This document shows, in pieces, positions 3,342-49,592 of a stretch of 64,000 bases of DNA (position 1 is its first letter; every line of letters begins with the position of its first letter). Origin of the DNA: a virus; the IMG/VR virus record IMGVR_UViG_3300047557_002951, positions 95,557 to 159,556 of that record; one strand, written 5' to 3'. The translations under genes and the position numbers were made by a program. The notes under the pieces were generated by a model, which was not told where the DNA came from, searched no databases, and saw nothing but the letters and a program-made list of their open reading frames with translations.

Positions 3342-3921
3342 AATACATCATATCCTCACGATAACGAGTAATCACAGCAGAAGCAAATTCAACAAAATTA
3401 TCCATATTAGCCTGTAGTTGATCTTCACTGCAATCAAAATTGTTTGTAATTCTTTCGATCATATCTTCACTTGGAAGCTGACACATCAGAAGAGAAAGAA
3501 CCGCAATTAGATAACATGCAGTATTGTGCGCAGGGCTGACATCTCTCATGGTAAGAATGACATCAAATGTGCTGGGAATTCCTTCTTCTTCGTCACCATC
3601 TTCATCTGCACCATAAGCAGCAATAGCACCCATACCACAAATCCAGATCAATTCAAAACACATAAAGTTTTGATCATCGGGAGAAATTAGAATTAGTTCT
3701 TCTTTTGTTGGAACTTTACCATTTCGGAGATCATCGACGATTTGATCTGGGACATCCTCAAGTTCAAAATCTGGTGGAATGCAATCCGCGAGATCATGAC
3801 GATACATCAGACAGCTTAAAAAATCATAAGTAAAATCAGTAATTTCTTCTCCTTCTTTTTTAATGTCATTAATTCTCGACTGAAGAGACTTCAGATCGAT
3901 CGAATTGGATTCGGTGCTCAT
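3316..3921 (-). CDS. Unknown acidic protein
   Basis: 201 residues, strongly acidic and helical. Residues 25-60 (DFTYDFLSCLMYRHDLADC) and 120-200 are packed helices; an acidic loop (YGADEDGDEEEG) lies at about 110-120. No catalytic motif is visible. The start overlaps the upstream stop by 4 bases. The acidic loop could bind a divalent cation; this is speculation. Confidence 0.7.
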   Translation of the reverse strand: MSTESNSIDLKSLQSRINDIKKEGEEITDFTYDFLSCLMYRHDLADCIPPDFELEDVPDQIVDDLRNGKVPTKEELILISPDDQNFMCFELIWICGMGAIAAYGADEDGDEEEGIPSTFDVILTMRDVSPAHNTACYLIAVLSLLMCQLPSEDMIERITNNFDCSEDQLQANMDNFVEFASAVITRYREDMMYYGTSKELD

Positions 3922-4190
3922 TGCGTTTTCGATTCAGACTCCATACTAACATGAGACTCATGGGCTGTCAACTCCTCAAGCAGGTCTTGTGCCAGTTTTT
4001 CATATTTCCACTTCATAATCAAATTAGTTATTGGATTTCTTGGATGAAAACGAATCATCCAATAGAATCGTTCTAGTTTAATTTGAAATAATTTAAACAA
4101 TAAAACAATCGCATCGGATACATTTTTATCCACTACAATAGCATAACCCAAAATAGAAAAAATAAACAACAAAGAGTAATATAAACTCAT
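3918..4190 (-). CDS. Small membrane-anchored protein
   Basis: 90 residues. Residues 1-21 form a hydrophobic segment (LYYSLLFIFSILGYAIVV) without a cleavage site, probably an N-terminal membrane anchor; the rest is amphipathic with many aromatics. It overlaps both neighbours by 4 bases. Function unknown. Confidence 0.6.
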   Translation of the reverse strand: MSLYYSLLFIFSILGYAIVVDKNVSDAIVLLFKLFQIKLERFYWMIRFHPRNPITNLIMKWKYEKLAQDLLEELTAHESHVSMESESKTQ

Positions 4191-4375
4191 AAGTTCGATT
4201 CTCCACTAATTGTGCGTCTTAAGTTCTGTAGATATTCAAGAACAAAATCTTGCCAAACAGTCAACTCAGAATCACATTCAAGTTTTTTTGCTCGCATTCT
4301 GATCTCATTGTGTGGAGTGCGGACATCTTCGATGAGGAGATCAATCGCCTCAAGTTGTTTATTTTTTGTTGTCAT
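4187..4375 (-). CDS. Small unknown protein
   Basis: 62 residues, predicted helical (KQLEAIDLLIEDVRTP, WQDFVLEYLQNLRR). Coupled to the next gene by a 4-base overlap. No family recognised. Confidence 0.6.
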   Translation of the reverse strand: MTTKNKQLEAIDLLIEDVRTPHNEIRMRAKKLECDSELTVWQDFVLEYLQNLRRTISGESNL

Positions 4376-4532
4376 TTTGGATTAAAATCGGACAGCTTGG
4401 AATTACTTTTTTTATTTCTTTTTTTATTTCGATCTTTTGTGTTGGTGTCAACCCAATTACATTTTGCAATCGATTGAATATCTCAACTACTTGTGAGCAA
4501 CTTATAATTGCGATCGAAAAAATTTCCAACAT
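4359..4532 (-). CDS. Small unknown protein (57 aa)
   Basis: Starts MLEIFSIAIISCSQVV, has a lysine-rich middle (KIEIKKEIKKVIP) and ends QNDNKK. The ATG shares bases with the upstream TGA (TGATG). The N-terminal 16 residues are hydrophobic and could act as a weak membrane segment. Found by reading the gap between neighbours. Confidence 0.5.
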   Translation of the reverse strand: MLEIFSIAIISCSQVVEIFNRLQNVIGLTPTQKIEIKKEIKKVIPSCPILIQNDNKK

Positions 4533-4843
4533 CAGTCTCTTCGCATTGAATCATCATCATTCTTAAAGAAATTATAAAGATCATCAACTGACATTGAAGA
4601 ATCTAGATGAGTAGATGGATCTGGATTTCCTAGATCCATGATCTGCATAAACTCATCCAAACTTCCGTCTTCTCCTTTTCCTTGTACCGCAACTCTTCGT
4701 GCCTTACGAATAATTCCAGCAGCAGATCGATTTGCTTTTGACCATTTTTCGGCAAAAATCATATCTTCTAAACTCACTTCTTCGCCATTTTCAATTCGAG
4801 TTGCAATCTGTTCTAGGCGAAGTCGTGTTTGCGTTGATAGCAT
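4532..4843 (-). CDS. Conserved cyanophage-type protein
   Basis: 103 residues. Helical N-terminal half (TRLRLEQIATRIENGEEVSL, then a basic NRSAAGIIRKARR) and an acidic C-terminus ending FFKNDDDSMRRD. The basic helix next to an acidic tail is a pattern seen in small regulators, but no family is recognised. Confidence 0.65.
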   Translation of the reverse strand: MLSTQTRLRLEQIATRIENGEEVSLEDMIFAEKWSKANRSAAGIIRKARRVAVQGKGEDGSLDEFMQIMDLGNPDPSTHLDSSMSVDDLYNFFKNDDDSMRRD

Positions 4844-4865
4844 AATGTCTCCTAATAAACAATAT

Positions 4866-5087
4866 TTATTTGGTCTTCCTTGGCTTTCTTATCTTAGAAG
4901 TGGAAGAAGATGAGTCAATAAAGATGGTGCCAATTCCTGGTTTGGCTCGATGATTTTCAATAAATTTTTTTGCTTGTAATTCTGTATTAACAACTTCTAA
5001 CTGTTCATTGTTAAAAATGATCATTAGCTGTTTCTTTCCATAAGGAACAACAGCATAATGATCTTGTGTGATAAATCCTTTTTTCAT
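4866..5087 (-). CDS. Small unknown protein
   Basis: 73 residues with alternating hydrophobic strands (HYAVVPYGKKQLMIIFNNEQ) and a Ser/Lys-rich tail. It overlaps the HNH gene stop by 4 bases, so the two are co-translated. Function unknown. Confidence 0.6.
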   Translation of the reverse strand: MKKGFITQDHYAVVPYGKKQLMIIFNNEQLEVVNTELQAKKFIENHRAKPGIGTIFIDSSSSTSKIRKPRKTK

Positions 5088-7631: not shown

Positions 7632-8153
7632 TTATTGGTGCTTTTGTAGGTATTTAACGGCATTGCTTAATGTGCTGATATTATCACCGACCAATCCTAA
7701 CATTCTATTACAATTGCTACAAAGTAATCCACGCACCTTTCCAGTATTATGGTCGTGGTCCACATAAAGATTTTTACTATCTTTTCTACCATTAGTATTT
7801 GGATTTAGACAAATAGCGCATACTTCATTCTGCTCTTGTAATACACTTTTATACTGCTCTAAACCAAAGTCTTCTCCATAAGTATATTTTAACATATAGT
7901 CTTTCTTATCATCATAAGAAGGTCTCTTATCTTTATAGTCTTTACTATAACAATCTTTACACCTTTTATGACCTTTATAATACTCATCAATAAGTTTTTC
8001 TACACCACATTTATTGCAGACAATATGAGTTTTACTTGCCCAGTTTTCAGCATAAGTTTTCTCTTCACACCTCATACACCTTCTACGACCTTCTCTAAAA
8101 TCAGAGGAGGGAAGTTCTTGTGTGCAGGTTCTACAAATCTTCGTGGTTCTCAT
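7632..8153 (-). CDS. EndoVII-type HNH endonuclease (probable homing enzyme)
   Basis: 173 residues. Two zinc ribbons at the N-terminus (CRTC...CMRC about 7-28; CNKC...CKDC about 47-70) precede a recombination endonuclease VII domain: CAICLNPN, then the core LYVDHDHNTGKVRGLLCSNC and NRMLGLVGDN. T4 gp49 (EndoVII) resolves branched DNA, but copies with extra zinc ribbons next to photosynthesis genes are usually freestanding homing endonucleases; the psbA-linked enzyme of phage S-PM2 is the known precedent. It lies directly downstream of psbA, which carries two introns, and has its own TATAAATA late box. Confidence 0.88.
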   Translation of the reverse strand: MRTTKICRTCTQELPSSDFREGRRRCMRCEEKTYAENWASKTHIVCNKCGVEKLIDEYYKGHKRCKDCYSKDYKDKRPSYDDKKDYMLKYTYGEDFGLEQYKSVLQEQNEVCAICLNPNTNGRKDSKNLYVDHDHNTGKVRGLLCSNCNRMLGLVGDNISTLSNAVKYLQKHQ

Positions 8154-8174
8154 TATGGCGTTTAAACTTTTAAC

Positions 8175-8182
8175 TATTTATA
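8175..8182 (-). promoter_or_regulatory. T4-type late promoter box
   Basis: Minus-strand TATAAATA about 20 bases upstream of the EndoVII-type HNH gene. A TATAAT-like element (GCTATAATG) lies about 15 bases further upstream, between the psbA terminator and this box, so both early and late transcription seem possible. Confidence 0.6.
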
Positions 8183-8205
8183 AAATATTAAACTCCATTA
8201 TAGCA

Positions 8206-8233
8206 TAAAAAAAGAGACCCGTAAAGGGTCTCT
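8206..8233 (-). terminator. Terminator after psbA
   Basis: On the minus strand an 8-bp stem (AGAGACCC/GGGTCTCT, loop TTTAC) is followed by a run of seven T. It lies 8 bases beyond the psbA stop codon. Confidence 0.85.
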
Positions 8234-8240
8234 AATTTCA

Positions 8241-10272
8241 TTAACCGATGGTTGGAGCAGTAAGAGCAACAGGAGTTGTTTCTGCTGATGCCAAATCCAG
8301 AGGGAAGTTATGTGCGTTCCTCTCATGGAGCACTTCGAAACCAAGATTTGCTCGGTTAAGAATGTCTGCCCAAGTGTTAATCACATGACCTTGACTATCA
8401 AGAAGTGACTGATTAAAGTTAAAACCGTTACTCTGTTTCCTTAAATTTACCATCTTTAAGGAGAGGACTATATCTTCATCCCAGTAGGATGTTGGGCGCT
8501 AGTGTCGTATTACATTCCACGCTTGGAAAACCGACTAGTCTCTGAACCTTTCCAAGAAGCGTCTTGGACTTGGCTGCTGATTACCCATTTATGGAGGGCT
8601 TCCAGCAATTCACCCAAAGTTTACCGTCAAATTGCTAGGACGGGACCCCGACGATTGAGGTTAAATGCCATCGTAGAAACACCAAGAGCAGCGAACCAGA
8701 TTCCAACTACAGGCCATGCAGCAAGGAAGAAGTGTAGACTGCGTGAGTTATTAAAGGAAGCATATTGGAAAATAAGGCGTCCGAAATAACCATGAGCAGC
8801 AACGATGTTATAAGTCTCTTCTTCTTGGCCGAACTTGTAACCATAATTCTGTGACTCTTGCTCAGTTGTTTCACGAACCAAAGAAGAAGTCACGAGCGAT
8901 CCATGCATTGCTGATGCGAGAGAACCACCGAAGACACCAGCCACACCAAGCATGTGGAACGGATGCATAAGAATGTTGTGCTCTGCTTGGAATACAAGCA
9001 TGTAGTTGAAAGTACCAGAGATACCCAGAGGCATCGCATCAGAGAAAGAACCTTGACCGAAAGGATAGACCAGGAATACAGCAGAAGCAGCAGCAACAGG
9101 AGCACTGTAAGCAACGCAGATCCAAGGACGCATACCTAGACGGTATGAAAGTTCCCATTCACGACCCATATAAGCATAAATGCCGATAAGGAAGTGGAAC
9201 ACTACAAGTTGGAAAGGACCACCATTATAGAGCCACTCATCTAGAGAAGCAGCTTCCCAGATGGGGTAAAAGTGCAGTCCAATAGCATTGGACGAAGGAA
9301 CAACAGCACCAGAGATGATGTTGTTTCCGTACATTAAAGAACCAGCAACTGGTTCACGAATCCCGTCTCTTATCCCAATAAAACAGTCATATCTTGCGAC
9401 TTAGACCGTTTCAGTTGACCTATTTGATTTGCTCGTTTTGCGTTTTCTACTCTTCCACCATTTTCTACCCACTCTTTCCACTCATTAATATAAGAAATAC
9501 ATTCTTTAATTCTTTCACTTCTTCTATTTCCCATATGGGGAAGTATTTTTTCCAAAATGAAAAGAACTTTTTCTCTATTTCCTATATGAAGGACATAAAC
9601 TGGTTTTCCTTTGAGTGTTTTTCTATTAGGTACAAAATAGGGTTTATCTACAAAATTACTTAGTTTAGCAACCACATCTTCATCAGTCATAACAAGACGA
9701 ATGTATGGTGCTGGCGGTGCTTTAGAAAAGTCATAACGGTCTTTAGAACGATTATCTATTCCAAAGTATCCTTCACCTTCTAAAATTCCTGCAATCCAAG
9801 TAATTTGTGATTCTGTTAAATCAAGCATTTTGACTTCGCATCTACTGTTATATTTATACAGCAAGTGCGAATAAAAGTCAACTGTGAGATTTGGACTATA
9901 TCTTCACCCTTTAAATTTTTTAAAGGTGCTGGGCACTCTAGCCTGTTATTAAGGGGACTAAACCCCTCAGGTAGTCTCTGAACCTTCCTCAAGTGTACTT
10001 GAGGCTTGGCTGCTGATTGCCTTTCGGTTTCCAGCAATTCACCCAGTTTTAACATCATCCTTACGGATGAAGGACACAGATTAAAGCAGTATGTCTACGG
10101 GAGGTGCTGCAATAAATGCAACAATAAAACAGATAGTTGCCGCAAGAAGGCAAGGAATCATAAGAACTCCGAACCAACCAACATACAACCTATTATCGGT
10201 TGAAGTTACCCAGGAACAGAATTGTTCCCAGAGGTTTTCGCCAGAACGGCGTGAAGCAATTGAAGCAGTCAT
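8241..10272 (-). CDS. psbA: psbA, photosystem II D1 protein, split by two introns
   Basis: Three exons join to 1083 bases, encoding a 360-residue D1: exon 1 is 10091-10272, exon 2 is 8658-9368 and exon 3 is 8241-8430. Junction 1 restores V-D-I-D-G-I-R and junction 2 restores F-N-L-N-G-F-N, both exactly as in cyanobacterial D1, and no residue is lost. Both junctions obey group I rules (5' exon ends in T, intron ends in G). The GREWEL segment has Glu at the position that distinguishes high-light D1:2 (Glu) from D1:1 (Gln). The protein replaces photodamaged host D1 during infection. It ends ALTAPTIG, with the usual processed tail. It is driven by a near-consensus promoter and a late box. Confidence 0.95.
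8431..8657 (-). other. Group I intron 2 of psbA (no ORF)
   Basis: 227 bases. The 5' exon end ACCT pairs with intron GGGT nearby, giving P1 with the U-G wobble at the splice site. Core elements are visible in order: TGAATTGCTGGAA (P side), AATCAGCAGCCAAG (Q/R side), GGTTCAGAGACTA (P7 5') and GAAGATATAGTCC (P7 3'). The last base is G. It contains no reading frame for a homing enzyme. Its core is nearly identical to that of intron 1. Confidence 0.85.
9370..9828 (-). CDS. Intron-encoded LAGLIDADG homing endonuclease
   Basis: 152 residues from the MLDLTESQ start (a 12-residue longer version reads [12 protein letters not shown]). A single LAGLIDADG motif is seen as [14 protein letters not shown] near residue 11, with the acidic residue in place, so it probably acts as a homodimer. 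A basic C-terminal region follows ([16 protein letters not shown]). Such enzymes cut intronless psbA copies to spread the intron. It has its own late box TATAAATA about 25 bases upstream, as known for intron enzymes of T4. Its stop lies flush against the 3' splice site. Confidence 0.88.
9853..9860 (-). promoter_or_regulatory. Late promoter box inside psbA intron 1
   Basis: Minus-strand TATAAATA about 25 bases upstream of the LAGLIDADG start. T4 intron endonucleases are likewise expressed from late promoters within the intron, which keeps translation from interfering with splicing of early transcripts. Confidence 0.6.
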
Positions 10273-10425
10273 TTTTCGTTAAAGGGTAAGTAAAAAGTCC
10301 AGGGGGAACTGGATGGTTACAGTATATCCCACACCACCCTCCAGTGTGGGTATGAGAGACGGATTTTACTTGCCCATTAGTCTCGGTAGGGCAAGATAAA
10401 AAGAAAAGTATTGTATTTTCAATGT

Positions 10426-10523: not shown

Positions 10524-11954
10524 TCAATAAATCTCCCTCCACTGAAGAGCAGCAGCAACAGAAGCAACTGCGTTACCTGTGGTAGTGATAGTTCTTACTA
10601 CAAGTACATAAATTTCAGAATCTGTGGAATTTATGTTTTGAACAATAATATTTTTCTTTGCCTGACTTAATGTTCCAGAAGAAACTGGTGAAAGTGAGTT
10701 TTGTGATGATCCCGAAGGAACATAACCTGATGCAAAGACATCACCATTAAAATAAGTTGTTGCATCAATACAGTATTCAACACCACTATTAGCAGAAGCA
10801 GAAGTCCAAGTCAAAGTTCCTGCATTACTCAAATAAGCAGAACTTGGAAGTTTTATAACTTTATAAACAATACTATTTGTTTCGCAGAATAATGAAATAT
10901 TATTCAATTTAACTGATATTCTATTTGGATATTCCTGAAAGGTATTTTTAAGACGAATTGCAACCAAAGGAAGTTCTGTTCCTGCGGGTGTTGGTGTAGT
11001 TCTTGTGGTAAGCATTGTATAAGCAAAATCAATACCACTTTCTACATATCCACCTTCAGACATCACAGATGCACAAATCTGGTCAAATGATGCTCCAATA
11101 CCAACACCAGTGTTTCTAATTTCACAACGAACTGGTAGGTTTGGATTTGCAATATAAACTGTTGGACTATTGTTAGAATGTAAAAATTCGTGTGCTGTAA
11201 TAAGTTGCCCATCGTGAGCAAAACCACAACGAACTCTACCAACACCTAACCATTGGAAATCTATAAATGTAAGTTGAGTTTTTGTAATATCTAAATTAAA
11301 CCCAGATGCTCCTGTTCCATCACATTTATCTCTATTCCATTGTGATTGTGGAATTCTAGTTTCTGTCGCAATACCACTTACAAAAGATCTAATTACCCAG
11401 TTATGAGTTCCAATACCAGGATTTATTCCATCAGAAGTATTAAGTCCAACCTGCTCAAAATAAATTCCATCCCTATCATCAAAGTATCCAGTTCTTTTAG
11501 TAGCATTCTGCTGAGGTGCATAAAAGTTAAAAGAACTAAAAATTAGTTGTCCTTTTCCTGGTTGATAATGATGATAAAACTTTGTTTGATGAAAAGAAAA
11601 TGCAGTAGATCCAATACCAGTCTGCAATCTTGCACACGCTTGGTTTTGTAAAAATGTTACGGTTGAACCTGCTCCTGAAACACTATCTAAAAAGTTTGGA
11701 TCTATAGCATAAAGATGCTTATAGTCCCCAAGAGTAAAAGGTTCAGAAACTCTATTTCTACCAAATGCATCAACTGCATTTGTATCCGGATTAATAGTTA
11801 TAAGGGTTTCTGATGAAATGCCAACAGTTCCAGTAACTGGAAATGGGTTATCGAGTGTAACGACTTCACCATTTTTATTGGCGATCATATTCACTTCAAA
11901 AAGACTTCTTTCTTGATTTAAGAAATCTTGATTAACTTTATTAAATTGTGCCAT
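10524..11954 (-). CDS. Virion structural protein (tail/fibre-associated, probable)
   Basis: 476 residues, rich in G, S, T, N and beta-type strands, without cysteine clusters or catalytic motifs. Segments such as SFVSGIATETRIPQSQWNRD, GVGRVRCGFAHDG and VTLDNPFPVTGTVGI resemble large cyanophage structural proteins found in virion proteomes. The small gene upstream starts with a capsid-targeting-like peptide. The exact location in the particle is unknown. Confidence 0.65.
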   Translation of the reverse strand: MAQFNKVNQDFLNQERSLFEVNMIANKNGEVVTLDNPFPVTGTVGISSETLITINPDTNAVDAFGRNRVSEPFTLGDYKHLYAIDPNFLDSVSGAGSTVTFLQNQACARLQTGIGSTAFSFHQTKFYHHYQPGKGQLIFSSFNFYAPQQNATKRTGYFDDRDGIYFEQVGLNTSDGINPGIGTHNWVIRSFVSGIATETRIPQSQWNRDKCDGTGASGFNLDITKTQLTFIDFQWLGVGRVRCGFAHDGQLITAHEFLHSNNSPTVYIANPNLPVRCEIRNTGVGIGASFDQICASVMSEGGYVESGIDFAYTMLTTRTTPTPAGTELPLVAIRLKNTFQEYPNRISVKLNNISLFCETNSIVYKVIKLPSSAYLSNAGTLTWTSASANSGVEYCIDATTYFNGDVFASGYVPSGSSQNSLSPVSSGTLSQAKKNIIVQNINSTDSEIYVLVVRTITTTGNAVASVAAALQWREIY

Positions 11955-11962
11955 TAGTCACC

Positions 11963-12292
11963 TCAAATCCACTCTAATTTCGATGGATGATATCTTTTTA
12001 CTTCCGATACTTTATAAGAATTTTGAGTCGGTATTGCAGGATAAATGTTATGAACTATTGCACCAGGATATTCATTCTGAATTTGTTCACCTAGCTTTTC
12101 TCTAGTCGGAAGACTATTAGAATCCGACATCAATTCAATTCTATAAAGATTTCCTTCCCACATAAAGTCAGCATAAAACTGCTCACCAACAGAAGACGGT
12201 GAAGAATCAGATCCATTAACAATTAATGTTCCAATTGAAGCATTACCTGAAATGTTGACACCCTCAGATAAAAATTGTTTATAAGTCTTCAT
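11963..12292 (-). CDS. Probable internal head protein
   Basis: 109 residues starting MKTYKQFLSE, very close to the capsid-targeting peptide MKTYQEFIAE of the T4 internal proteins, which gp21 protease cuts after (L/I)-x-E. The expected cut is after residue 10. The rest (FMWEGNLYRIELM, NEYPGAIVHNIYP) is a small alpha/beta domain of unknown function. A GATAAATA late-type box lies just upstream. Confidence 0.7.
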   Translation of the reverse strand: MKTYKQFLSEGVNISGNASIGTLIVNGSDSSPSSVGEQFYADFMWEGNLYRIELMSDSNSLPTREKLGEQIQNEYPGAIVHNIYPAIPTQNSYKVSEVKRYHPSKLEWI

Positions 12293-12344
12293 TTTTGTTA
12301 AGATTCTTATGTCTTATTTATCATTGATTTTCATAAATAATCAA

Positions 12345-12560
12345 ATGACATTAAAAGGTACAATTGTGCCAAGAGAATTTAATACTCCGCATCGACAAGA
12401 CTGGAACGCACCGATACATAATATCCTAAAAGCAATAGATAATCATAATCAAGAATATTTTAAAACTCAAGATATATGGCATATAGAAAAAGCAAAAATA
12501 CTTCGAGAATATGTGTCAGAACTCAAAACCTGGATTCATAAACAAGAAAATGAACAATAA
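12345..12560 (+). CDS. Small unknown protein
   Basis: 71 residues from the inner start MTLKGTIVPREFN; a 12-residue longer reading exists but begins hydrophobic and lacks a ribosome site. The rest is a long helix (NILKAIDNHNQEYFKTQDI). First gene of a short plus-strand operon with overlapping genes. Function unknown. Confidence 0.6.
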   Translation: MTLKGTIVPREFNTPHRQDWNAPIHNILKAIDNHNQEYFKTQDIWHIEKAKILREYVSELKTWIHKQENEQ

Positions 12561-12747
12561 AAAAAGAAAATGTTGGGATTTTGTAATGTCTTCATTTGCA
12601 AGATCTTATGGAGTCAAAAAAATCATGGCAGAAGAAAAATTTCATGAGATTGCATTATTTTGGTGCGATGAAAACGAGATAGAAAAATATAAGACCCTAG
12701 AAGAATATGATAGATATTTTAGAGAACTTTATGAGAACTGGACATGA
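12550..12747 (+). CDS. Small unknown protein
   Basis: 65 residues starting MNNKKRKCWDFVMSSFARSY, with many aromatic and charged residues (RYFRELYENWT end). Overlaps the upstream gene by 11 bases and the next gene by 4. No family recognised. Confidence 0.55.
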   Translation: MNNKKRKCWDFVMSSFARSYGVKKIMAEEKFHEIALFWCDENEIEKYKTLEEYDRYFRELYENWT

Positions 12748-12851
12748 ATGATTTTCCTTGGGGCGTTAGTATAGGTCTTGGAATTGTACTTTTAGGAACA
12801 TTATCATTTATTGTTTATATAATGCTTCTAGACAAGTTAGAAAAAAATTAA
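12744..12851 (+). CDS. Tiny membrane protein (35 aa)
   Basis: Reads MNDFPWGVSI followed by a hydrophobic span (GLGIVLLGTLSFIVYIMLL) and a KLEKN tail. Overlaps the upstream TGA (ATGA) and the downstream ATG (TAATG), so it is tightly coupled. It lies three genes from the lysis pair. A holin or antiholin is conceivable, but there is only one span and no further evidence. Confidence 0.5.
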   Translation: MNDFPWGVSIGLGIVLLGTLSFIVYIMLLDKLEKN

Positions 12852-32723: not shown

Positions 32724-33095
32724 TTAATATCCATGATTCATGATTGTCTTTGTGTATTTTCTTAAGATCTCGCCAGCCCTTGAATTTGCCTCATTCTCAC
32801 ATTCACTGCCAGTATCTCCACTCATTTCTTTACCACTTTGTTTTTGATGATAATGAACTAACTCATGAGCAAGAGTCCTATAAACATCTAATGGATGTCT
32901 TTTTGCAGTCTGGACTTTAATTTCATCTGTACCTAAATTAAAACAGCCAAAAGTTTTATTGTCGATAGAAAACTGTGGGTCATCTATAACAACAACTTTA
33001 GGTAAGTTTGTTAGGCCAAGTTCATCCTTTACAAAGTTCATAAAGTCCTTAACCTGGACTTTCTTTGATTCATTTAGAAACTCTCTAAATCTCAT
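32724..33095 (-). CDS. HEXXH metallopeptidase with capsid-targeting N-terminus
   Basis: 123 residues. The N-terminus MRFREFLNE resembles T4 capsid-targeting peptides with a cut after (L)-N-E. The zinc motif AHELVHYHQK lies at about 79-88 and a downstream acidic segment GSECENEANSRAGEIL could give the third ligand. The fold may be minimal zincin or SprT-like. Packaged in the head, it could be injected with DNA and cut host proteins. A GATAAATA late-type box lies upstream. Confidence 0.75.
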   Translation of the reverse strand: MRFREFLNESKKVQVKDFMNFVKDELGLTNLPKVVVIDDPQFSIDNKTFGCFNLGTDEIKVQTAKRHPLDVYRTLAHELVHYHQKQSGKEMSGDTGSECENEANSRAGEILRKYTKTIMNHGY

Positions 33096-45213: not shown

Positions 45214-45741
45214 TCAAACTAGAGGATTTGAATCATAGAGAGGAGCATTGCCAGTTTGAATGCCAGACATTGCAACTAATACTTCTGTTTTAACTCGATA
45301 ATTTCCACCAGCATCAACATAAGTTTTAATACCGACCCAACCGGCATGAGAAGGTGAATATACAGTACCTTGAGCTGCATTTATACCAGCAGTAGACACA
45401 CCAGCAATATATGGCTCATAATTAGTATGAGTTTGACTGAATTCGCTATCCAGAACAGTGTACTTTGGAAGTTGAGATACAGAGAAATCAGTATTTGCAA
45501 TTGCTGCACCACTAAGACCAGCAGTAGTGCCAATTGATAGCTGAGTTGTGCTTGCAATGCCAACAATCACAGCATCACCAAAATATGTGCCCCCAACAAC
45601 GCCAAATCGGATTACATCACCAACAGAAGCTGCACCAGCACCACCAAAGTTAGTTCCAGTAGCAGTTACAATACCTGTGGTATAGTTAAGCCAAACTTTA
45701 CCATTAGATGAAATATTGTCACTATTTCCCCAGAGTGCCAT
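45214..45741 (-). CDS. Virion structural protein (probable)
   Basis: 175 residues, Gly/Ala/Thr/Ser-rich beta-type sequence (KVWLNYTTGIVTATGTNFGG, GVGIKTYVDAGGNYRVKTEV). Starts MALWGNSDNISSNGK, like several small structural proteins of cyanomyoviruses. AATAAATA late-type box upstream. Confidence 0.65.
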   Translation of the reverse strand: MALWGNSDNISSNGKVWLNYTTGIVTATGTNFGGAGAASVGDVIRFGVVGGTYFGDAVIVGIASTTQLSIGTTAGLSGAAIANTDFSVSQLPKYTVLDSEFSQTHTNYEPYIAGVSTAGINAAQGTVYSPSHAGWVGIKTYVDAGGNYRVKTEVLVAMSGIQTGNAPLYDSNPLV

Positions 45742-46469: not shown

Positions 46470-47735
46470 TCAATCTTCTACTTTCTTTGGTAGACCTTTA
46501 TGTGGAGTTTTTGCAAACTTGCGAATTTCTTTCTCTGACATGCCATCCACAATGTCAAGAACTGCTTTGCTTACCTCAGACCTTGGAGTTTCACCACGCT
46601 TTACAGAAAGAGCAAGCCCAAAGAGTTTTTGTTGTTGTTGGCTTTCTGATTTTTCTAAAAGGAATGTTTCAATTTCTTCTTTTACTCCAACTTTTCTTCT
46701 AGCTGTTTCCTTTGCTGCCACATTTACAGCAGCTTTTGTTGCTTTTCTTGCCCCTTTAATTAATGCAGCCTGGACATTTCTACCAGCTTTTGTAGTCTCA
46801 AAAGGTTTTCTCAACTCAGAACCGGCTTGACGAACTCCAGAAATTACTTTCCCTGCAGTTTGCGCTGTTTGTTGAGCTGCAGTAGATAATCCTCGTCTTG
46901 CATTACGGTCTCTTTCTATACCTTTTTGTACAAATTTGGTGGCAGAAGTTATTCCTCTAGCCAAAGCATCAAGTGCGGGTCTAGCTTTTGGTTGTGTGGC
47001 AACAGCTTTTGCCACAGCTTCATCTCCTCTTGAAACTGCAACTTTTTTAGCTACCGTTGGTTTTTTCTTAACTGCTTCCCTAGCATCAATTTCTGCCTTT
47101 ATTTCTTCATATGATTTGCCACCTTTTCTCTTCTTTGCTTTTCTAGCTTCAGTCAATAAAAAGTCTTCGGAAATGTAAAATACATATTCAACAAATTTGT
47201 CGCATCCTAGATCTTCAATTACCATTTCAAGACCATCTTCATTTAAACCTTGATCATAAAAATACTGAGCAGCAACACCAACAACTTCTTCAATATATTC
47301 CTCAGATAGTTCTACTTGTTCACCAATATTAACATTTGGATTAATATCAATTTTATTTTTAATGTCTGATCTTTCTTCTATTTTTTTCTGTTTTAGATTT
47401 TCTATATCAGATTCTACATTGCCTACTTTTTCATGTAGTTCACATCTCCAATCAGAGAATGATTCTTTCATGGATTTTTTCTTTTTGTTAAATTTGCCGC
47501 CAACTTCTCCCTTTTCATAACCTATACCATCACCATCATCGTCCCACCACCTATTTGGTTTACCCTCTTCGTCTTTATCTTCATCTTCTTTATTTTCATC
47601 TTCTTTTTTCTTCATTTTCATTTTCTCTTCAATGTACTGAAGATATTCATCTCTTTTGGAGATTACTTGTCCAGAAACAGACTCTAGATAAATCTGCTTC
47701 ATCTCATTTAAACTTTCTACGATACGATCAGACAT
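46470..47735 (-). CDS. Large internal head protein (probable), with acidic metal-binding-like loop
   Basis: 421 residues. N-terminus MSDRIVESLNE then MKQIYLE offers two (L)-x-E cut sites. A K/E-rich segment leads to RWWDDDGDGIGYEKGEVGGK, an acidic calcium-loop-like motif. ESFSDWRCELHE is a short repeat typical of such proteins. Middle has the VAAQYFYDQGLNEDGLEMVI helix pair (GYA-like); C-half is basic, Ala-rich. AATAAATA late-type box upstream. Confidence 0.65.
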   Translation of the reverse strand: MSDRIVESLNEMKQIYLESVSGQVISKRDEYLQYIEEKMKMKKKEDENKEDEDKDEEGKPNRWWDDDGDGIGYEKGEVGGKFNKKKKSMKESFSDWRCELHEKVGNVESDIENLKQKKIEERSDIKNKIDINPNVNIGEQVELSEEYIEEVVGVAAQYFYDQGLNEDGLEMVIEDLGCDKFVEYVFYISEDFLLTEARKAKKRKGGKSYEEIKAEIDAREAVKKKPTVAKKVAVSRGDEAVAKAVATQPKARPALDALARGITSATKFVQKGIERDRNARRGLSTAAQQTAQTAGKVISGVRQAGSELRKPFETTKAGRNVQAALIKGARKATKAAVNVAAKETARRKVGVKEEIETFLLEKSESQQQQKLFGLALSVKRGETPRSEVSKAVLDIVDGMSEKEIRKFAKTPHKGLPKKVED

Positions 47736-47763: not shown

Positions 47764-48987
47764 TTATTTATTCTTTACGCTCTTTCTATATTTTTTTATA
47801 AAATTCTTTATCTCATTTGTATCACTCATTTTCATAGCATATTCTCTATAGGAATCAGTTCCTACTAATCGTTGATCCGCTGGAACACCAGAAATATCAG
47901 TCCATTCTGTAAGATCCTTAATCCAAGATTTAAACATTATATTATCTTCAGTAACACAAATAAGATAATTTGGCCCACGACGAGTCACCTTTCCCACCAA
48001 ACCAGTATTCAAATTTTCAACAATACTACCAACTTTAAATATATTTTCTTGGTAATATTGCTCTCGTAATTCTTCGTAATCTAGTTTAGGTGCATATTCC
48101 CAAACTTCAGATACTTCTTTTGGTGCTTTATCTCCAACCATTACACGCTGAACAGCAAAAAACATTGCCTGAGAATCTTTGTCTTTCATTCTCTTAGGTA
48201 AACCAGTTTTAAATTGCTGATAATTATCATCAACTGCTGCTTTGCGAAGTTTTGATGCCGACATTCCCGTTGGTCCAGCCGCATCAGGATCTCTAGGACC
48301 TGCTGGGACTACATTGATTTCATCAAAAGAATATATTTGACCATTATATTGATTTGCCAATCTTTCAAATTCCGGCAATCTTTCAGTTCCAACTACAATA
48401 TTTACTTTTTTGTAGCCATCTTCATTCGCTCCAACCAATACATCAAATATTGTTTTCATTTTATCATCATTAACAATATTTTCCTTATAATCTGGAAACA
48501 TCTTTTTCATGTACTTAACTTTAGATGCTGGATCCAATGGATTTTTATTTGCATCCTGCGTTCTTGATGGATAAATCTTAAAATCTCCGCCAGTAGATAT
48601 TTCCTTTGCTTTTTTGATTAATTTCTCATGACCAATTGTTGGTGGATTAAATCTACCAAATACAACAGTTAGTGGAACTTCTTTGTCAATTTCTTGTGGT
48701 GCTGGTTCTTGTTTTGGTGGTGATATTCCTAATCTTTCTTTTGGTGCTGCTGGCTTTTCAAATGCTCGTTCACCTGGCTTCGCACCTTTTGGTTCTGGTT
48801 CTGCTTTTTCTGGTGATGGACTTTTTTTGCGGACCATCTCTAAGTCTCCCCCAACTGTTTGGGCTACAACTTTTCCACTTCTATCCACCCAGTTCCCATG
48901 ACCATCAGAAGTTAATCCAAGGCGATATGCCTTCTCTGATGCTCTAGAACCACGAAATTCTAATATAAATTGCGAAAACTTTTTCAT
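47764..48987 (-). CDS. Internal head protein with nucleotidyltransferase domain
   Basis: 407 residues. N-terminus MKKFSQFILE then FRGSR resembles the T4 capsid-targeting peptide with a cut after I-L-E. Residues about 100-290 form a cytidylyltransferase/NMNAT-like domain: LTVVFGRFNPPTIGHEKLIK (HxGH family), KIYPSRTQDANKNPL, and GMSASKLRKA (the ISSTxIR-type motif). C-terminal region has a small beta domain (VGSIVENLNTGLVGKVTRRG). A late-type AATAAATA lies upstream. Confidence 0.8.
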   Translation of the reverse strand: MKKFSQFILEFRGSRASEKAYRLGLTSDGHGNWVDRSGKVVAQTVGGDLEMVRKKSPSPEKAEPEPKGAKPGERAFEKPAAPKERLGISPPKQEPAPQEIDKEVPLTVVFGRFNPPTIGHEKLIKKAKEISTGGDFKIYPSRTQDANKNPLDPASKVKYMKKMFPDYKENIVNDDKMKTIFDVLVGANEDGYKKVNIVVGTERLPEFERLANQYNGQIYSFDEINVVPAGPRDPDAAGPTGMSASKLRKAAVDDNYQQFKTGLPKRMKDKDSQAMFFAVQRVMVGDKAPKEVSEVWEYAPKLDYEELREQYYQENIFKVGSIVENLNTGLVGKVTRRGPNYLICVTEDNIMFKSWIKDLTEWTDISGVPADQRLVGTDSYREYAMKMSDTNEIKNFIKKYRKSVKNK

Positions 48988-49014: not shown

Positions 49015-49536
49015 TTATCTACTCGATCCTCTTGTGCCATATGTACCGCCAGTTCTACTCCTATTAGTTCCTCTGCCACCAGCAGTGCGGCGATCTGCAT
49101 ATCTACCACCAGTTAATACGTCTGATGGCTGTTCATCGGCAATTTTTCTCCCAGTTCTTGGATCGTAAATGCCAGTTTTCATGACACCTGAAATTGTACC
49201 GGAACCAATTACATCTCTTCCTTTTTGTGGTTTTTCACCCCTACCAGGAACTCGTTTTGGCTTTGGTTTTCGTTTGTTTAACTCTGCGCCAACTTTAGCT
49301 GAAATATTGGCTTGTTTCGCTAATTCGGTTGCGCGATCATGTAATCCTTGAGGAACTGGCTTGCCTCTCTGAATTAATTGTTGAATTTCTCTCCTAATTT
49401 TGGCCAATTCAACTTGATCTTCATTGATAAGTTCATCATACCAATCATCGCTAGCAACATGAAGTATCTTCAATGCAGAAACCATATCATTGGCAAATCC
49501 ATTTTCTACCAAATACTCAGCGATGTATAATTCCAT
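49015..49536 (-). CDS. Internal head protein (probable), GYA-like N-terminus
   Basis: 173 residues from MELYIAE, with IAE as a possible cut site; three more residues could precede it. NGFANDMVSALKILHVASDD fits the GYA-type motif. The C-half is R/G/T-rich (GGRYADRRTAGGRGTN). Late box TATAAATA about 25 bases upstream. Confidence 0.65.
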   Translation of the reverse strand: MELYIAEYLVENGFANDMVSALKILHVASDDWYDELINEDQVELAKIRREIQQLIQRGKPVPQGLHDRATELAKQANISAKVGAELNKRKPKPKRVPGRGEKPQKGRDVIGSGTISGVMKTGIYDPRTGRKIADEQPSDVLTGGRYADRRTAGGRGTNRSRTGGTYGTRGSSR

Positions 49537-49559
49537 TTGTAACAATTAGAACTTTTTAT

Positions 49560-49592
49560 TATTTATATTAAAAAACCTCCCGAAGGAGGTGA
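49560..49592 (-). terminator. Terminator followed by late promoter
   Basis: Hairpin ACCTCC/GGAGGT with loop TTCG (minus strand), six T, then TATAAATA (49560-49567). Ends the small gene upstream and starts the internal protein gene. Confidence 0.8.

What the first reader, a model, noticed from the sequence alone, without database searches (positions are those of the whole stretch)
47764..48987. Head-targeted nucleotidyltransferase (NMNAT/cytidylyltransferase-like)
The N-terminus has a targeting-like peptide and the middle carries the HxGH and SxxxLRK motifs of NMN adenylyltransferases. A packaged NAD or nucleotide-transfer enzyme could modify host molecules or counter NAD-depleting defence.
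Basis: partly seen in the sequence, partly recalled or inferred. Interest (0 to 1): 0.55.

Follow-up and report, generated by a model that had tools for sequence, protein, structure and literature searches.

The report
Cyanophage head-packaged nucleotidyltransferase with targeting tag
A virus related to those that infect marine cyanobacteria carries a gene for a nucleotide-transferring enzyme bearing the same short tag that phage T4 uses to load proteins into its head, so the enzyme is probably injected into the host with the viral DNA; its exact substrate is still unknown.

Summary
The ORF is real (407 aa, minus strand, 47764-48987). It is the cyanophage 'cytidyltransferase' (PHROG 395), a core protein already reported in virions of relatives, with a NAD role already proposed in print. 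The 'targeting peptide' holds up: MKKFSQFILE resembles the T4 IPII/IPIII capsid-targeting sequence MKTYQEFIAE, and F4, F7 and E10 are identical in 82 of 82 rows (81 distinct loci), at positions that govern T4 targeting and cleavage. The 'HxGH' is really TxGH (as in CoaD); SASKLRK is present. The modelled fold is the adenylyltransferase fold, tied between CoaD, NadD and NMNAT, so 'NMNAT' is not established. New here: in the relative S-CREM2, 5 of 6 strictly tagged proteins are virion proteins (47 of 211 without); a ~40-residue 'SDGHG' module behind the tag recurs on other packaged proteins; a terminator and T4-type late promoter precede the cassette; in many relatives the enzyme lies beside, or fused to, DUF6267, possibly a divergent nucleic-acid ligase. 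Best reading: a T4-style internal head protein delivering an active nucleotidyltransferase; substrate open. Against: jumbo-phage relatives and some cyanophages (Syn1, MED4-213) have the enzyme without the tag, and virion detection could be carry-over.

The parts
47764..48987 (-). 407-aa tagged nucleotidyltransferase (PHROG 395 'cytidyltransferase')
   Evidence: ORF; PHROG 395 E 2e-98; 528 phage records with a relative at E<=1e-5, 376 of them covering at least 80% of it
48958..48987 (-). residues 1-10 MKKFSQFILE: T4-type capsid-targeting sequence with a predicted gp21 site (I-L-E, cut after E10; cleavage inferred)
   Evidence: F4, F7, E10 82/82 rows; T4 IPII/IPIII N-termini; T4 rules from PMC9026906 passages
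48820..48948 (-). residues 14-56: 'SDGHG' module that recurs on other packaged proteins
   Evidence: module HMM hits S-CREM2 gp14 and gp12 and S-CRM01 g128; residues 1-56 are the most constrained part
48682..48819 (-). residues 57-102: variable, predicted disordered linker
   Evidence: low pLDDT 54-101; highest dN/dS, 0.18-0.68
48124..48681 (-). residues 103-288: HIGH-superfamily nucleotidyltransferase domain
   Evidence: AF2 model; VIA-align Z 13.9 to CoaD, 13.3 to NadD, 13.2 to MthNMNAT
48628..48639 (-). T117-I-G-H120 catalytic motif (TxGH)
   Evidence: E. coli CoaD also has TNGH, E. coli NadD HYGH
48241..48261 (-). S243-A-S-K-L-R-K249, the ISxTxxR-type motif
47902..48069 (-). residues 307-362: small beta-rich C-terminal domain (SH3-like by eye), a separate gene in Syn1
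   Evidence: no Pfam family or convincing PDB match
49560..49567 (-). TATAAATA, T4-type late promoter element ahead of the cassette
49575..49590 (-). intrinsic terminator-like hairpin just upstream of the late promoter element
49015..49545 (-). first gene of the cassette, about 173-176 aa, unknown
   Evidence: in-frame ATG lies 9 nt inside the listed TTG start
46470..47735 (-). downstream gene, 421 aa, DUF3008 at its C-terminus; a DUF3008 protein is labelled a virion protein in S-SCSM1 (ORF93)
45214..45741 (-). downstream gene, 175 aa, 56% identical to S-SCSM1 ORF95 (labelled virion protein)

Best explanation
It is a T4-style internal head protein whose cargo is an active HIGH-superfamily nucleotidyltransferase. 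Made late in infection from a gp55-type late promoter, it is drawn into the prohead core by its N-terminal capsid-targeting sequence, probably cut by the gp21 protease after E10 (I-L-E), locked in the head with the DNA, and ejected into the next host at the start of infection, where it transfers a nucleotide from ATP (or CTP) to a small phosphate-bearing substrate. Shown here: the tag and its conservation, the fold by modelling, conservation of catalytic residues, purifying selection, the promoter-like element, the tag-to-virion association in a relative. Reported by others: detection of relatives in virions. Inferred: cleavage, ejection, catalysis. Substrate undecided: NMN is the single most likely guess (about 0.35).
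For: Tag: F4, F7, E10 in 82/82 rows, residue 8 I, L or F in 81 of 82; T4 CTS uses residues 4 and 7 for targeting, 8 and 10 for processing, gp21 cuts after L/I-x-E (PMC9026906 passages); T4 tag sequence read from the record. Tag versus virion: in S-CREM2, 5 of 6 strictly tagged CDS are in the published virion list against 47 of 211 untagged, p 0.0033. Published virion detection: S-SM1 T4-GC190, S-CREM2 ORF154, S-SCSM1 ORF91 (53% identical to this protein), S-SZBM1. Enzyme: H120 and R248 82/82, S243 80/82; fold match to CoaD/NadD/NMNAT; dN/dS 0.02-0.20 in the catalytic part. Late unit: terminator plus TATAAATA upstream, TATAAATA on the gene strand in 27 of 76 relatives and on the opposite strand in 0 of 76, shuffle expectation 14.8.
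Against: No virion data for this phage; its record is a fragment in which no portal, gp21, gp22, major capsid or large terminase relative was found, so a protease for the cut cannot be shown. The S-CREM2 and S-SCSM1 authors say carry-over of abundant soluble protein is possible; S-CREM2 had only 3 unique peptides. The catalytic domain also exists without the tag in Syn1, MED4-213 and jumbo phages Muenster and MIJ3, so packaging is not universal in the wider family. First catalytic His is Thr/Ser here. TATAAATA is not enriched in the window as a whole (9 found, shuffles 6.5 +/- 2.9; 29 of 100 shuffles reach 9). The strict tag pattern was written after seeing examples; with the looser first pattern the S-CREM2 result is weaker (5 of 9 against 47 of 208, p 0.038).
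Confidence: 0.7

Rival explanations
1. It is specifically an NMN/NaMN adenylyltransferase that rebuilds NAD+ early in infection, possibly against NAD-depleting defence.
For: Of specific subfamily models, NMN/NaMN ones match more members of the family (TIGR00482 20 of 30, TIGR01526 15 of 30) than CoaD (TIGR01510 3 of 30), all weakly; for the window protein TIGR01526 E 7e-4 against coaD 0.1. Fold compatible. Published suggestion.
Against: TxGH rather than HxGH; the window protein is far below the curated cut-offs (18.9 against 341 bits); fold tied with CoaD; no PF04095 (Nampt/NAPRTase) partner in the record, a fragment.
Confidence: 0.33
2. It works with DUF6267, a divergent nucleic-acid ligase or similar lysine nucleotidyltransferase, in an end-modification or repair pair (for example recycling NMN to NAD+ for the ligase, or preparing ends for sealing).
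For: Of 54 DUF6267 viral loci, 3 have both domains in one ORF and 41 have the NTase downstream on the same strand within the held flank, 40 of these with the NTase match starting within about 530 nt; PHROG 455 spans both. DUF6267 has invariant K52-x-D-G55, E367-G-x-V370 and K379 (20 sequences), like ligase motifs I, IV and V (recalled); 49 of the 50 listed VIA-align rows are nucleic-acid ligases or ligation complexes, best Z 7.7.
Against: Z 7.7 is within the range of models without a clear match, and Foldseek found no match at E<=0.001. 10 of 54 loci show no NTase, several because the contig ends. Both genes are common in the same phage family, so mere co-occurrence is weak. No DUF6267 in this record, which is a fragment; in P-SSM2 the two genes lie about 100 kb apart. 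Jumbo phages have the NTase and are absent from the ten organism names listed for DUF6267.
Confidence: 0.25
3. It is an ordinary soluble auxiliary metabolic enzyme made during infection; virion detection is carry-over.
For: Authors' own caveats; untagged relatives exist; the gene sits between replication genes.
Against: Tag invariant in 82/82 rows at the T4-critical positions; residues 1-56 are under at least as strong constraint as the catalytic part in 11 of 11 comparisons; tag-to-virion association; several independent virion reports.
Confidence: 0.12
4. It is a head structural protein that no longer has enzyme activity.
For: First His lost; Pfam score below cut-off.
Against: H120, R248, K156 invariant and S243 80/82; CoaD is active with TxGH (E. 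coli sequence, activity recalled); a multidomain head scaffold would not need these.
Confidence: 0.1

Closest known systems
PHROG 395 / T4-GC190 cyanophage 'cytidyltransferase' (called NMNAT in S-SCSM1)
   Same: Same protein family: E 2e-98; S-SCSM1 ORF91 53% identical over 409 aligned columns, same tag, module, catalytic and C-terminal parts. Virion detection published.
   Different: No difference in kind; the tag, the shared module, TxGH and the DUF6267 link were not mentioned in the passages I saw.
T4 internal proteins IPII/IPIII and Alt
   Same: Ten-residue N-terminal tag with aromatic 4, F7, I/L8, E10; late expression and head packaging inferred.
   Different: Cargo is a nucleotidyltransferase, not a small basic protein or ADP-ribosyltransferase; gene lies between replication genes.
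Phosphopantetheine adenylyltransferase CoaD
   Same: TxGH motif; best structural score, Z 13.9, rmsd 3.2, 159 residues.
   Different: Subfamily model TIGR01510 matches 3 of 30 members weakly.
NMN/NaMN adenylyltransferases (NadD, NadM, NadR)
   Same: Fold (Z 13.3 and 13.2); ISxTxxR-type motif; weak profile matches.
   Different: TxGH instead of HxGH in this clade; no curated cut-off reached by the window protein.

Membership tests
T4-type capsid-targeted internal head protein | N-terminal ~10-residue tag with key residues 4, 7, 8, 10 | tested here: met
   F4, F7, E10 82/82, residue 8 I/L/F in 81 of 82; T4 rules in PMC9026906 passages
T4-type capsid-targeted internal head protein | gp21-type L/I-x-E cleavage site at the end of the tag | tested here: met
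   I8-L9-E10 in sequence; actual cleavage not tested
T4-type capsid-targeted internal head protein | present inside the virion | not testable with these tools
   no virion data for this phage; relatives reported in virions
T4-type capsid-targeted internal head protein | phage encodes a gp21 prohead protease | tested here: inconclusive
   none found, but portal, scaffold, major capsid and terminase are also missing from this fragment
HIGH-superfamily nucleotidyltransferase (PF01467) | fold | tested here: met
   AF2 domain 103-288, Z up to 13.9; Foldseek best E 6e-6
HIGH-superfamily nucleotidyltransferase (PF01467) | Pfam gathering score | tested here: inconclusive
   19.3 bits against 21 for the window protein; 27 of 30 relatives match at E<=0.01; S-CREM2 protein 22.3 bits, over the cut-off
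NMNAT/NaMNAT | HxGH motif | tested here: not met
   T117-I-G-H120
NMNAT/NaMNAT | ISxTxxR-type motif | tested here: met
   S243-A-S-K-L-R248
NMNAT/NaMNAT | curated NMNAT model cut-off | tested here: not met
   window protein: TIGR01526 18.9 of 341.15 bits, TIGR00482 12.1 of 112.45
NMNAT/NaMNAT | makes NAD+ or NaAD | not testable with these tools
   needs an assay
CoaD (PPAT) | TxGH motif | tested here: met
CoaD (PPAT) | curated coaD model cut-off | tested here: not met
   TIGR01510 12.6 of 103.3 bits
Phage NAD+ reconstitution with a Nampt-type partner (NARP2, recalled) | Nampt/NAPRTase partner gene | tested here: inconclusive
   PF04095 absent from a fragmentary record; control rang in 6 of 14 genomes
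Nucleic-acid ligase superfamily (for the neighbour DUF6267 of relatives) | KxDG, EGxV and K motifs in order | tested here: met
   20 sequences
Nucleic-acid ligase superfamily (for the neighbour DUF6267 of relatives) | ligase fold | tested here: inconclusive
   49 of 50 VIA rows are ligases or ligation complexes but best Z is 7.7; Foldseek has no E<=0.001 match

The most novel reading that the evidence does not exclude
T4-like cyanophages carry a head-delivered enzyme kit: a capsid-targeting tag, often followed by an SDGHG module, is attached to different enzymes (a nucleotidyltransferase here; a SAM lyase and a kinase in S-CREM2), and the nucleotidyltransferase works with the ligase-like DUF6267 as a nucleic-acid sealing pair that acts at the first moments of infection, possibly an NAD+-using ligase with its own NMN-to-NAD+ recycler in one polypeptide.
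Probability: 0.15. Interest if true: 0.8.

Novelty: new variant of a known kind. Interest (0 to 1): 0.5.

Why it matters
If right, a protein listed among cyanophage core genes and usually filed as an auxiliary metabolic gene is instead delivered inside the particle by the T4 tag system. That answers the carry-over doubt left open by earlier proteomics, gives a ten-residue sequence rule for predicting other delivered enzymes in T4-like marine phages, and points to DUF6267 as a testable enzymatic partner.

Tried and rejected
Single-sequence PDB search gave nothing; the profile gave only weak hits, best E 0.16, with NMNATs at 0.67 and 0.99. NMNAT against CoaD could not be separated: the fold is tied and profile scores are weak. 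Namat of the NARP1 pathway was considered and dropped: it is Nampt-like (PMC12774641, outline and passages). PF04095 and PF03420 were not found in the record; PF03420 rang in none of the 14 control genomes, so that search alone says nothing. DUF6267 is not found in this record; the family search again had no positive control. C-terminal domain: no Pfam match up to E 10 and one weak PDB hit (E 0.35, antifreeze protein), taken as chance. The module HMM also hit 19 residues of the S-CREM2 major capsid protein (E 0.016), taken as chance. CTAAATA as an alternative late element was not enriched (10 found, 16.1 expected). The 'Cas9' label of S-CREM2 gp12 gained no Pfam support (0 families at E<=0.05). 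Expression timing of this gene was not settled by PMC7238727 (passages); another paper was not held. Paper searches for the tag in cyanophages: 'capsid targeting sequence' + 'cyanophage' gave 1 paper, the T4 review, whose only mention of cyanophages is a reference title; 'capsid targeting' + 'Synechococcus' + 'virion' gave 1, seen as a listing only; 'DUF6267' gave 0.

Rows dropped: L057 and L147 left out of alignments A1 and A2 because their reading frames hold a stop. S-CREM2 test used 217 of 219 CDS; gp51 and gp118 straddle the fetched pieces. Upstream scan used 76 of the 80 loci: L028, L052 and L063 have under 1.5 kb upstream, L005 was left out by oversight. In the context print nine loci were asked for, five held TATAAATA, and four of those five have the hairpin in front (not L029).

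Full report
What is there. The ORF at 47764-48987 (minus strand, 407 aa) is intact. It belongs to PHROG 395, 'cytidyltransferase' (E 2e-98), and also matches PHROG 3041 and the C-terminal half of PHROG 455. tblastn finds a relative in 528 of 50,697 phage records at E<=1e-5 (376 over at least 80% of its length), mostly Synechococcus and Prochlorococcus phages; the best is 57% identical (B23), followed by S-SCSM1. The record is a 159,556-base virus fragment in which no portal, prohead protease, scaffold, major capsid or large terminase relative was found with S-CREM2 queries.

Already known. Sullivan et al. 2010 (PMC3037559, passages) list a putative 'citidylyltransferase', T4-GC190, as a cyanophage core protein detected in S-SM1 virions; Syn1_161, a relative found here, carries that cluster number. 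Relatives were also detected in virions of S-CREM2 (3 unique peptides; PMC10665884, passages and section 18), S-SCSM1 (PMC9602691, passages) and S-SZBM1 (PMC9146016, passages). The S-SCSM1 and S-CREM2 papers suggest NAD+ synthesis and warn of carry-over. So virion association and the NAD idea are not new.

The tag. In 82 aligned rows (the window gene appears twice, so 81 distinct loci) M1, K2, F4, F7 and E10 are invariant, and residue 8 is I, L or F in 81. T4 IPII and IPIII begin MKTYQEFIAE. According to the T4 review PMC9026906 (passages), the first ten residues of IPIII suffice for packaging, residues 4 and 7 govern targeting, 8 and 10 govern processing, gp21 cuts after L/I-x-E, and CTS-fused proteins are delivered into the host on infection. 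The window tag meets these rules. In 11 of 11 comparisons with relatives, residues 1-56 have a lower or equal dN/dS (0-0.09) than the catalytic part (0.02-0.20), and the linker is the least constrained (0.18-0.68) (dS is near saturation in several).

Does the tag predict packaging? In S-CREM2, whose virion proteins are published, a strict tag pattern fits 6 of 217 CDS (0.07 expected from internal windows); 5 of the 6 are virion proteins, against 47 of 211 without the tag (p 0.0033; 0.0002 when assigned structural and lysis proteins are left out). The five are a SAM lyase (gp6; Pfam support), gp13, a kinase (gp14), gp136 and the nucleotidyltransferase (gp154). The strict pattern was written after a first look at 106 of these CDS; with the first, looser pattern the result is 5 of 9 against 47 of 208, p 0.038. 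Gp12, labelled Cas9, carries a tag-like stretch behind an 18-residue extension and was not counted. In the window's own record the strict pattern fits 3 of 391 start candidates, 0.29 expected.

A shared module. Behind the tag, residues 14-56 form an 'SDGHG' module. An HMM of it finds S-CREM2 gp14 (two copies, E 6e-17), S-CREM2 gp12 (8e-13) and S-CRM01 g128 (7e-14), among 7,026 open segments of the loci searched (the 80 relatives were left out of that search); two weaker hits are the Syn9 nucleotidyltransferase (0.03) and a probable chance hit in a capsid protein (0.016). In S-CRM01 the module is a separate tagged gene just before the tagged nucleotidyltransferase. So tag plus module looks like a reusable cargo part, at least in cluster C cyanophages and this clade.

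Late unit. The cassette begins 3' of a hairpin terminator (49590-49575) and TATAAATA (49567-49560), the T4 late promoter sequence (recalled). TATAAATA is not enriched in the window (9 found, 6.5 expected), but all 9 are on the minus strand. Upstream of the gene in 76 relatives it is found in 27 on the gene strand and in 0 on the other, shuffle expectation 14.8; in L006, L011, L012 and L018 the hairpin lies directly in front of it, in L029 it does not.

The enzyme. The AF2 model is good for the catalytic domain (blocks mostly 80-93 pLDDT, 65 at 231-240), poor for the linker and overall (mean 70.4, pTM 0.46). Foldseek gives NadD first (E 6e-6) with CoaD and NMNAT close behind; VIA-align gives CoaD Z 13.9 (rmsd 3.2, 159 residues), NadD 13.3 (3.3, 162), MthNMNAT 13.2 (2.7, 153), which count as tied. 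H120, R248, K156, N114 and P116 are 82/82, S243 80/82. The HxGH first His is T or S in this set, as in E. coli CoaD (TNGH); S-CRM01, S-CREM2 and Muenster keep HxGH. Subfamily models lean to NMN/NaMN enzymes (TIGR00482 20 of 30, TIGR01526 15 of 30, coaD 3 of 30) but very weakly. I conclude: very probably an active nucleotidyltransferase; substrate undecided.

A partner in relatives. In Syn1, S-CRM01, Syn9, MED4-213 and Melnitz-2 a DUF6267-type gene lies upstream. Among 54 DUF6267 viral loci, 3 carry both domains in one ORF, 41 have the nucleotidyltransferase downstream on the same strand (40 starting within about 530 nt), 10 show none, several because the contig ends. PHROG 455 covers both domains. 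DUF6267 has invariant KWDG, EGxV and K379 in 20 sequences. Its model (pTM 0.71) gave no Foldseek match at E<=0.001, yet 49 of 50 listed VIA-align rows are nucleic-acid ligases or ligation complexes, best Z 7.7 to Naegleria RNA ligase. That is suggestive, not proof. The window record has no DUF6267, and in P-SSM2 the two genes lie about 100 kb apart, so the link is not universal.

Limits. Relatives in Syn1, MED4-213, Muenster and MIJ3 have no tag. Cleavage, ejection, catalysis and substrate are inferred. The finding is a known virion protein for which this work supplies a delivery mechanism and a candidate partner.

Noticed in passing
window 32724-33095 (-): 123-aa protein with a strict T4-type tag (MRFREFLNE) and an HExxH motif (HELVH); weak Peptidase_M78 and Tox-MPTase3 matches, E 0.001, below cut-offs: a possible head-packaged metallopeptidase.
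   Followed up: partly
window 11963-12292 (-): 109-aa protein of unknown family starting MKTYKQFLSEG, close to the T4 IPIII tag.
   Followed up: no
L153 (S-CREM2) 7704-10313 and 10579-12846: Virion proteins labelled Cas9 and APH-like kinase share the SDGHG module with the nucleotidyltransferase; the Cas9 label has no Pfam support.
   Followed up: partly
L153 (S-CREM2) 3837-5081: A SAM lyase with a T4-type tag is among the published virion proteins: a possible injected anti-restriction enzyme.
   Followed up: partly
L099-L152, L083 976-2169: DUF6267 (PF19782) may be a divergent nucleic-acid ligase.
   Followed up: partly
PHROG 4808: Named 'ribonucleotide reductase alpha subunit' but matches the C-terminal small domain of this protein (residues 301-360), so the name is probably wrong.
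   Followed up: no
window 8175-49567: All 9 TATAAATA octamers of the window lie on the minus strand, though the number itself is not above shuffles.
   Followed up: no
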